64,000 nt of DNA from the NCBI GenBank assembly GCA_016875395.1, contig VGRF01000003.1, positions 62,001 through 126,000 of the forward strand, read 5' to 3'. Below the pieces are notes generated by a model, which was not told the DNA's origin, did no database searches, and worked only from the letters and a program-made list of their open reading frames with translations. The stretch's first letter is position 1. The number at the start of each line of letters is the position of its first letter. Positions 9,634-52,485 of this stretch are shown here, piece by piece. The position numbers and the translations under genes were made by a program. The stretch is from Deltaproteobacteria bacterium (GTDB lineage Bacteria; Myxococcota_A; UBA9160; UBA6930).

Positions 9634-10233
9634 CTACTCGACCTTCCCCAGCGCCTCGCGAATCACCGCCGGATCGAGCCACACGTGGTAGTCCTCGCGC
9701 ACGTCGACGAAACGCACCACGCCGCCGCGATCCAGTAACAACGTCGTCGGGTGCGGGACGCCCGCCTCGATCGGCTCTGCGTTCGGCCGTCGCAGCCCGA
9801 GCGCATCGATCGCCCGCGAGTCCGGGTCTCGCCAGAAGTGAACTCGGCCGCGCAGGTTGTAGTCGTCGACGAAGCGATCCGAGCGCGCGTTGTACTGCGC
9901 CTTCGCCATCACCCACACCACCGCGAGCTCCGGCTCGTCGGCCAGCAGACTCCGCAGCTCGACGAGCCGCGCCTTGGTGAAGGGTCACCAATCCACGCTG
10001 CGTTCGAAGATCAGCAAGATGGGGCGATCGATCAGATCGCCGAGCCGCACCGCGCGGCCAGAAGCGTCTTCGAAGGCGAGCGCGGGCAGCGGCTGCCCCA
10101 CGAGCTGTGCCGCCGCCGCGACGTGCGCGCGCACCTCGCGTTCGGTCACGCGCCGGCCGAGCGCGCTGCTCGGCAGGTACGCGTTGAGCACGAACAGCAA
10201 CACGATGAACGCCGTGGCGATCCCGCGCATCAT
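9634..10233 (-). CDS. Redoxin-fold protein, candidate selenoprotein with in-frame UGA (Sec83)
   Basis: Read through one in-frame TGA (9985-9987), this is a 199-residue peroxiredoxin/thioredoxin-fold protein. Residues 1-25 form a signal anchor (ATAFIVLLFVLNAYL). The fold starts at VGQPLPALAFEDASG; the strand PILLIFERSVDW runs straight into the UGA, then PFTKARLVELRSLL, the position where relatives have the catalytic Cys of W-C-P-[FY]. Downstream GVPHPTTLLLDRGGVVRF supplies the cis-proline motif, so coding clearly continues. Bases 14-32 after the UGA fold into an 8-bp stem with loop GUC, fitting a bacterial SECIS (loop 22 bases after UGA). The usual second cysteine is Thr (U-x-x-T). The start ATG 10233 overlaps the upstream stop as ATGA. 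The alternatives are a nonsense mutation or a sequencing error. Confidence 0.85.
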
Positions 10234-51429: not shown

Positions 51430-52485
51430 CTACGCCTCCACCCTCGCGTAGTAGTTCTTCGCCCCGATCTTCTTCACGTCGCTGAGCCAGTCGCTGTCGT
51501 AGTGCTCGGTCGGGCCTTGCAGCGGATCCACCATCGACCAGGCCTGGCGCTTGTACGTCCAGTTCTCGGGCTGGAGGCGATGCGCGGCGCGGAAGAACGG
51601 GCGCGCCGCGGCTTCGTGGCCGTTGCGGTGCAAGTGCTGGCCCAGCTCGAAGTTCGCGGCGGCTTCGGACACCGACTTCGGGCGCGCGGCGGAGCGCTCG
51701 ATCACCTGCTCAGGTGTTAGGACGTACCTGCTCTTGGCGCCGTTGCGCGCCCAGTCGCGCAGCATCGTGATGGTGGCCTGCAGGTCGATGTCGAGCTTCG
51801 ACGCTTCGGCCAGCATCTCGCGCATGCGCTGCGGCGTCTCGGGCGGCAGCTCGGTCGCGCCGTAGCCGCGCTCGCGCGGCGCGAAGGCGGGCTCCGCGGG
51901 GCGCACGATCATGCCCGCTTCGTCGATCCACACGCTCATCGGCACGTTGATGATGCCGAGCAGCGCGCCGAGCGAGTGCTCGGGATCGAGCAGCTGCGGG
52001 TAAGTCGTCTTCGCGTCGTCGATGATCGGCGTCGCGGCGCTCGTGTTCGTGTCCATCGCTACGAGCACGATCTCGACGCCGAGGGGGCGCAGCTCGTTTC
52101 GCACCGCCTGCCACACGGGCAGGTCCATGCGGCAGCCTCACCAGCTCGCCCACGAGCACATGAAGACCTTCGTGCCCTTCAGCGAGCCGAGCCGGAACGG
52201 GTTGCCGTCGCGCTGCGGCAGCGTGAGATCGGGCGCGACGGCGGTTGTTAGGGCTCGGCCGCCCGACACGGGGCCGAGCGCCCAGAGCTTGTGCGCTTCG
52301 CTCGCGACGAGCGCCATGCCGAGCGCGTCCGCGACCGCCGGCACGTTCACGCGGCCATCGCTGCGGCGCGCGCTCGCGGGAACCGGCATGCAGACTTCGG
52401 CTTTGCACGCGCCTTCGGGCTTCAGCTCCCAGCCCGTGCCGCGCGCGAACTCGGCGGCGCTGGGATCGAGGCGGTCGAGGATCAT
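51430..52485 (-). CDS. Thioredoxin-like (ResA/TlpA type) protein, candidate selenoprotein with in-frame UGA (Sec116)
   Basis: Read through TGA 52138-52140, this is a 351-residue protein. A unique N-terminal region (about 1-85) is followed by a redoxin domain: APDLTLPQRDGNPFRLGSLKG, the strand KVFMCSWASW, UGA, then GCRMDLPVWQAVRNEL. So the motif is W-U-G-C-R, where ordinary ResA/TlpA proteins have W-C-x-x-C. It continues through VEIVLVAMDTN, the cis-proline NVPMSVWIDEAG and a C-terminal TPR-like stretch (FELGQHLHRNGHEAAARPFFRAAHRLQPE). GAAGGAG precedes ATG 52485. Bases 3-30 after the UGA can form an 11-bp hairpin with loop ACCUGC, closer to the UGA than usual. Confidence 0.85.

What the first reader, a model, noticed from the sequence alone, without database searches (positions are those of the whole stretch)
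51430..52485. Second candidate selenoprotein: UGA in the active site of a ResA/TlpA-like protein
Seen: two same-frame reading segments separated only by TGA 52138-52140; the sequence ...CSWASW-U-GCRMDLPVW places UGA at the first catalytic Cys. The thioredoxin fold continues past it to a cis-proline motif (NVPMSVW). A possible 11-bp hairpin lies 3-30 bases after the UGA, loop 14-19, slightly closer than typical. Inference: a selenol/thiol pair U-G-C with unusual spacing (one residue rather than two), fused to an N-terminal domain I do not recognise and a C-terminal TPR-like stretch.
Basis: partly seen in the sequence, partly recalled or inferred. Interest (0 to 1): 0.9.

Follow-up and report, generated by a model that had tools for sequence, protein, structure and literature searches.

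The report
Known UGC-motif thioredoxin-like selenoprotein gene
The gene very probably makes a selenocysteine-containing redox protein in which an in-frame UGA is read as selenocysteine, but it belongs to a protein family that NCBI has already catalogued (WAxxUGC_long), so it is well supported and fairly ordinary.

Summary
On the minus strand, 51430-52485 is one 351-codon gene with a single in-frame TGA at 52138-52140 and a TAG stop. Read through, it matches NCBIfam NF041054 (WAxxUGC_long, "ResA-like WAxxUGC motif-containing protein") at 522 bits against a cut-off of 300, over its whole length. The genome carries tRNA-Sec, SelA, SelB and SelD above their curated cut-offs. Of 78 named homologues, 62 have TGA and 16 have a Cys codon in the same column; nothing else occurs. 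The tree needs at least five Sec/Cys exchanges. A hairpin just after the UGA (5-6 bp, loop NG[U/G]NN starting 20 nt downstream) is intact in 62/62 UGA genes and only 4/16 Cys genes, and fits the published bSECIS model. The protein has a small N-terminal domain with an invariant Cx4C, a ResA/TlpA-type thioredoxin fold with UGC, and a helical TPR-like tail. It is a new member of a known selenoprotein family. Substrate unknown; the Cx4C as a built-in resolving pair is my inference.

The parts
51430..52485 (-). selenoprotein gene, 351 codons plus TAG stop; member of NCBIfam NF041054 WAxxUGC_long
52138..52140 (-). in-frame UGA, Sec116, first residue of the UGC redox motif (Gly117, Cys118)
52107..52123 (-). 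conserved bSECIS-like hairpin CCUGCC / loop CGUGU / GGCAGG; the loop (52113-52117) starts 20 nt after the UGA
   Evidence: 62/62 UGA homologues keep 5 pairs, 4/16 Cys homologues do; C-G to U-A change on both sides of the outer pair; consensus fold
52264..52485 (-). N-terminal domain, residues 1-74, with invariant Cys27 and Cys32 (Cx4C); found only attached to this redoxin domain in the genomes searched
51736..52254 (-). ResA/TlpA-type thioredoxin-fold domain, about residues 78-250, with UGC motif and cis-Pro segment NVPMSVW
51433..51714 (-). C-terminal helical region with weak TPR similarity, about residues 258-351
   Evidence: TPR_2 E 0.005, below its cut-off; helices in the model

Best explanation
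The gene encodes a selenoprotein of the WAxxUGC_long family. SelB with Sec-tRNA(Sec) reads the UGA as selenocysteine because a bSECIS hairpin follows it in the coding sequence, with its loop 20 nt downstream (supported comparatively, not shown at the bench). The product is probably a cytoplasmic thiol/selenol oxidoreductase: Sec116 attacks a disulfide or peroxide substrate and Cys118 resolves the intermediate as a Se-S bond (inferred from fold and motif). The invariant Cys27/Cys32 pair in the N-terminal domain may then pass electrons to or from the UGC site (inferred, weaker).
For: Full-length match to NF041054, 522 bits, cut-off 300. tRNA-Sec 71 bits with anticodon TCA, SelA 515 bits, SelB 282 bits, SelD 262 bits, all above cut-off. 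Homologues: 62 TGA and 16 TGC/TGT at the same column among 78; all over-cut-off copies in the order-wide and phylum-wide searches have exactly one TGA. Two relatives with Cys lie in the same class. At least five Sec/Cys changes on the tree. Hairpin kept in 62/62 UGA forms and 4/16 Cys forms; five pairs at the same offsets occur at 1.1% of other frame positions. The Leu codon in the 5' arm is CTG in 21/21 order-level copies against 36% usage of CTG in those genes, while other conserved Leu columns vary. Fold: ResA/DsbE-type structures at Z 17-19. Cys27, Cys32, residue 116, Gly117 and Cys118 invariant; Cx4C present in all 78 named homologues. SelA found in 3 of 3 Sec-form genomes tested.
Against: No protein or selenium data. 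The homologues are related, so 62/62 is fewer than 62 independent observations. Frankia torreyi has a Cys form and a SelA match, so presence of the machinery does not by itself predict Sec. The substrate is unknown, and gene neighbours are not conserved.
Confidence: 0.96

Rival explanations
1. The TGA is a true stop: the gene is a pseudogene, or a sequencing or assembly error has put a TGA into a Cys-type gene.
For: The window comes from a draft assembly (96 contigs), and read support could not be checked.
Against: The same TGA is in 62 named homologues and in all 9 over-cut-off copies of the order; the downstream half is conserved, with invariant residues after the UGA; the hairpin is kept in all TGA forms and lost in most Cys forms.
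Confidence: 0.02
2. UGA is read as another amino acid (for example Trp) by a changed code or a suppressor tRNA.
For: None found beyond the in-frame UGA.
Against: Homologues exchange TGA only with Cys codons, never with TGG; a tRNA-Sec with anticodon TCA is present; close relatives such as L026 and L028 use TGA as their own final stop.
Confidence: 0.01
3. It is a selenoprotein, but it acts mainly as a peroxidase (peroxiredoxin-like) and not as a disulfide reductase.
For: AhpC-TSA and Redoxin are the best Pfam hits; peroxiredoxins also align at Z about 15; the 2008 survey called a UGC-containing family Prx-like (PMC2398784).
Against: ResA, DsbE and TlpA score higher in sequence and structure; the site is WASW-U-G-C and not the peroxiredoxin PxxxTxxC/U.
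Confidence: 0.25

Closest known systems
NCBIfam NF041054 WAxxUGC_long (ResA-like WAxxUGC motif-containing protein)
   Same: Whole-length profile match above the equivalog cut-off, same motif and architecture
   Different: Nothing found that sets it apart; nearest named relative is 60% identical (L125)
UGC-containing TlpA disulfide reductase family / Prx-like (UGC-containing) of the selenoproteome surveys (PMC13188914, PMC2398784)
   Same: Same UGC motif, PF00578/cd02966 domain, Sec and Cys forms
   Different: I could not compare sequences with the members listed there, so identity with NF041054 is likely but not shown
ResA / TlpA / CcmG (DsbE) thiol-disulfide oxidoreductases
   Same: Thioredoxin fold, Z 15-19; first redox Cys position equals Sec116
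   Different: They carry CxxC; here U-G-C with one residue between. They are exported or membrane anchored (general knowledge); here no signal peptide is apparent. They lack the N-terminal Cx4C domain and the TPR-like tail
UGSC-containing and other UxxC thioredoxin-like selenoproteins
   Same: Sec in a thioredoxin-like redox motif
   Different: Different spacing and different families

Membership tests
NCBIfam NF041054 WAxxUGC_long | whole-protein score above the curated cut-off of 300 bits | tested here: met
   522.3 bits, residues 1-350 to profile 1-353 of 354
NCBIfam NF041054 WAxxUGC_long | WAxxUGC motif with in-frame UGA | tested here: met
   WASWUGC, UGA at 52138-52140
Bacterial selenoprotein | Sec machinery in the genome (tRNA-Sec, SelA, SelB, SelD) | tested here: met
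Bacterial selenoprotein | Cys homologues at the Sec position | tested here: met
   16 of 78 named homologues; two in the same class
Bacterial selenoprotein | bSECIS hairpin: 3-9 nt loop, 4-16 bp stem, G in the first two loop positions, loop 16-37 nt after UGA (PMC13188914) | tested here: met
   5-nt loop CGUGU with G second, 5-6 bp stem, loop at 20 nt; conserved 62/62. The -7.5 kcal/mol criterion was not computed for this hairpin alone
Bacterial selenoprotein | selenium present in the protein | not testable with these tools
   needs 75Se labelling or mass spectrometry
ResA/TlpA/DsbE-type thioredoxin fold | structural match to that subgroup | tested here: met
   3gl3, 4nmu, 2f9s at Z 17.7-19.1, rmsd 2.2-2.6 over 137-139 residues
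ResA (NF002854) | score above the ResA cut-off of 170 bits | tested here: not met
   50.7 bits; it is ResA-like, not ResA
TPR protein | Pfam TPR score above cut-off | tested here: not met
   TPR_2 17.3 bits, cut-off 27

The most novel reading that the evidence does not exclude
The family-specific N-terminal domain with its invariant Cx4C pair is a built-in redox partner that reduces or resolves the Sec-Cys bond of the UGC site in the same chain, making this a self-contained selenol relay. The domain itself had no convincing match among solved structures by Foldseek.
Probability: 0.3. Interest if true: 0.5.

Novelty: new member of a known kind. Interest (0 to 1): 0.27.

Why it matters
It confirms a selenoprotein call made by eye and shows that the genome holds several more UGA-containing redoxins that ordinary gene calling would split. 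The wide set of Sec and Cys forms, with a hairpin present in all Sec forms and lost in most Cys forms, is a good natural data set for what a bSECIS needs. The invariant Cx4C domain is an uncharacterised part with a direct bench test.

Tried and rejected
Conserved operon partner: immediate neighbours across about 45 loci share no family (the most common, SnoaL_2, is in 7 of 81 neighbours); rejected, although a SnoaL-like gene adjoins several Cys-form copies. N-terminal domain alone against solved structures: no Foldseek match with E below 1; this does not show that the fold is new. N-terminal domain as a stand-alone protein: the 15 matches in 189 genomes lie at the starts of genes of this same family, judged by their coordinates. 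Paper search for WAxxUGC: none; the Haft and Tolstoy 2025 paper is not held.

Full report
OBSERVATION. The finding's coordinates are exact and the gene is on the minus strand. Translation of window 51430-52485 minus gives 351 residues with one TGA, at residue 116 (52138-52140), and ends at a TAG stop. The two table-11 pieces, 52138-52485 (115 aa) and 51430-52128 (232 aa from a downstream ATG), are what an ordinary gene caller would list. An open frame of this length is not very unlikely by itself at 70% GC (about 0.01); the evidence is homology on both sides of the TGA.

FAMILY. The read-through protein matches NCBIfam NF041054, WAxxUGC_long, "ResA-like WAxxUGC motif-containing protein", at 522 bits against a cut-off of 300, residues 1-350 to profile 1-353. 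Pfam gives AhpC-TSA and Redoxin across the UGA and a sub-threshold TPR. The profile is in NCBI's curated library, so the family is known. The 2026 review of prokaryotic selenoproteins lists a "UGC-containing TlpA disulfide reductase family protein" (PMC13188914), and the 2008 ocean survey lists "Prx-like (UGC-containing)" with 46 Sec sequences and 855 Cys homologues (PMC2398784). That these are the same family as NF041054 is likely, but I could not compare sequences.

SEC MACHINERY. The genome (4.5 Mb, 96 contigs, 96% complete) has tRNA-Sec (Rfam 71 bits; ARAGORN anticodon TCA), SelA (515 bits), SelB (282 bits) and SelD (262 bits), all above their curated cut-offs.

HOMOLOGUES. In 80 genomes of the order there are nine copies over the cut-off in eight genomes, and about twenty more distant relatives that match at E below 1e-50; every one has exactly one TGA. 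A phylum-wide sample of 379 genomes adds two relatives without a stop, which read CGC and CAC at the motif. The named-genome scan gave 78 loci: 62 have TGA and 16 have TGC or TGT at the same column; no other residue occurs (for five loci the first automatic motif call missed the site, and one search placed the UGA). The scan's first pattern was written with Cys, so the proportion of Cys forms is not a fair estimate. Sec forms come from Actinomycetota, Chloroflexota, Thermomicrobiota, Myxococcota and Pseudomonadota; Cys forms include Frankia, Patulibacter and Pseudomaricurvus isolates. A tree of 99 proteins needs at least five Sec/Cys changes. The window protein lies near actinobacterial Sec and Cys copies (97/95 support for a set of five), so horizontal transfer is possible. 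L089, titled Myxococcales bacterium UWMA-0315, sits at zero distance from L028, a copy from a genome of the window's own order, so the window is probably from that part of Myxococcota as NCBI names it.

SECIS. The consensus fold of 21 order-level copies is a hairpin with its loop 20 nt after the UGA codon, CCUGCC-(5 nt)-GGCAGG, here at 52107-52123. All 62 UGA homologues keep five pairs and have a loop of the form NG[U/G]NN; only 4 of 16 Cys homologues keep five pairs. Five pairs at those offsets occur at 1.1% of other frame positions in the same genes. The outer pair shows C-G in 54 and U-A in 4 sequences, a change on both sides. The Leu codon in the 5' arm is CTG in 21 of 21 order-level copies, while CTG makes up 36% of Leu codons in those genes and other conserved Leu columns are mixed. 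Relatedness of the sequences weakens all these counts. The hairpin fits the published bSECIS model: loop of 3-9 nt, G in the first two loop positions, mostly followed by G or U, and 16-37 nt from UGA to loop (PMC13188914).

STRUCTURE. The AlphaFold2 model has mean pLDDT 82 and pTM 0.74. Residues 78-250 match DsbE of Chlorobium tepidum and ResA at Z 17-19 (Foldseek E about 1e-10). Residues 1-74 form a small alpha/beta domain, predicted alone at pLDDT 92, with no useful match in the PDB by Foldseek. Its Cys27 and Cys32 are invariant in the order-level alignment, and a Cx4C is present in all 78 named homologues, Sec and Cys alike. In 189 genomes the domain was found only in this family. No signal peptide is apparent from the start MILDRLDPSAAEFARGTGW (my reading, not a prediction tool), so a cytoplasmic place is inferred.

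MECHANISM. Shown comparatively: UGA is kept as a sense codon exchangeable only with Cys, with a conserved downstream hairpin. Inferred: SelB-dependent insertion; Sec116 as the attacking residue; Cys118 as the partner, through a one-residue spacing that the family shares. Speculative: the N-terminal Cx4C as a built-in electron relay. The substrate is unknown. The window neighbours are an ecdysteroid-kinase/APH-like protein, a luciferase-like monooxygenase, an amidohydrolase and a Rieske ring-hydroxylating oxygenase, which points to a catabolic setting, but neighbours are not conserved across the family.

VERDICT. It is a new member of a known selenoprotein family, with a corrected SECIS and an uncharacterised Cx4C domain as the one part worth bench work.

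Noticed in passing
window 9634-10233, minus strand; TGA at 9985-9987: Second UGA-containing redoxin in the window: FERSVDWUPFTKARLVEL in an AhpC/TSA-like protein of 199 residues; weak SelL-related and TlpA matches. No SECIS or homologue test was done.
   Followed up: partly
G000:C29:57335-57934 (L006): A more distant paralogue of the same family in the same genome, motif YSSWUGC, one TGA, 242 bits, under the family cut-off; with its relatives it may form sister subfamilies that NF041054 does not cover.
   Followed up: partly
G000:C1:299563-300081 (L148) and G000:C9:92623-93117 (L155): Two SelL-related redox proteins, each with one in-frame TGA; the first reads RHFGUPICRQ. The genome looks rich in selenoproteins.
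   Followed up: no
L153 (G351:C21:60300-62200): Cys relative with CAC in place of UGC and a hydrophobic N-terminal stretch that looks like a signal peptide, so a possibly exported form.
   Followed up: no
L061, L064, L069, L072, L076, L077, L081, L083, L109, L124: A gene of one cluster (SnoaL-like; SnoaL_2 leads the neighbour tally) adjoins ten copies, all of the Cys form, in some with stop and start overlapping.
   Followed up: partly
G000:C1:239014-239925 (L134): SelD match lies in an open frame of 746 aa, which could be a fusion such as Ndh-SelD.
   Followed up: no
L103: Contig titled Klebsiella pneumoniae (a MAG) carries a copy that clusters with other Pseudomonadota MAG copies; the organism name may be wrong.
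   Followed up: no
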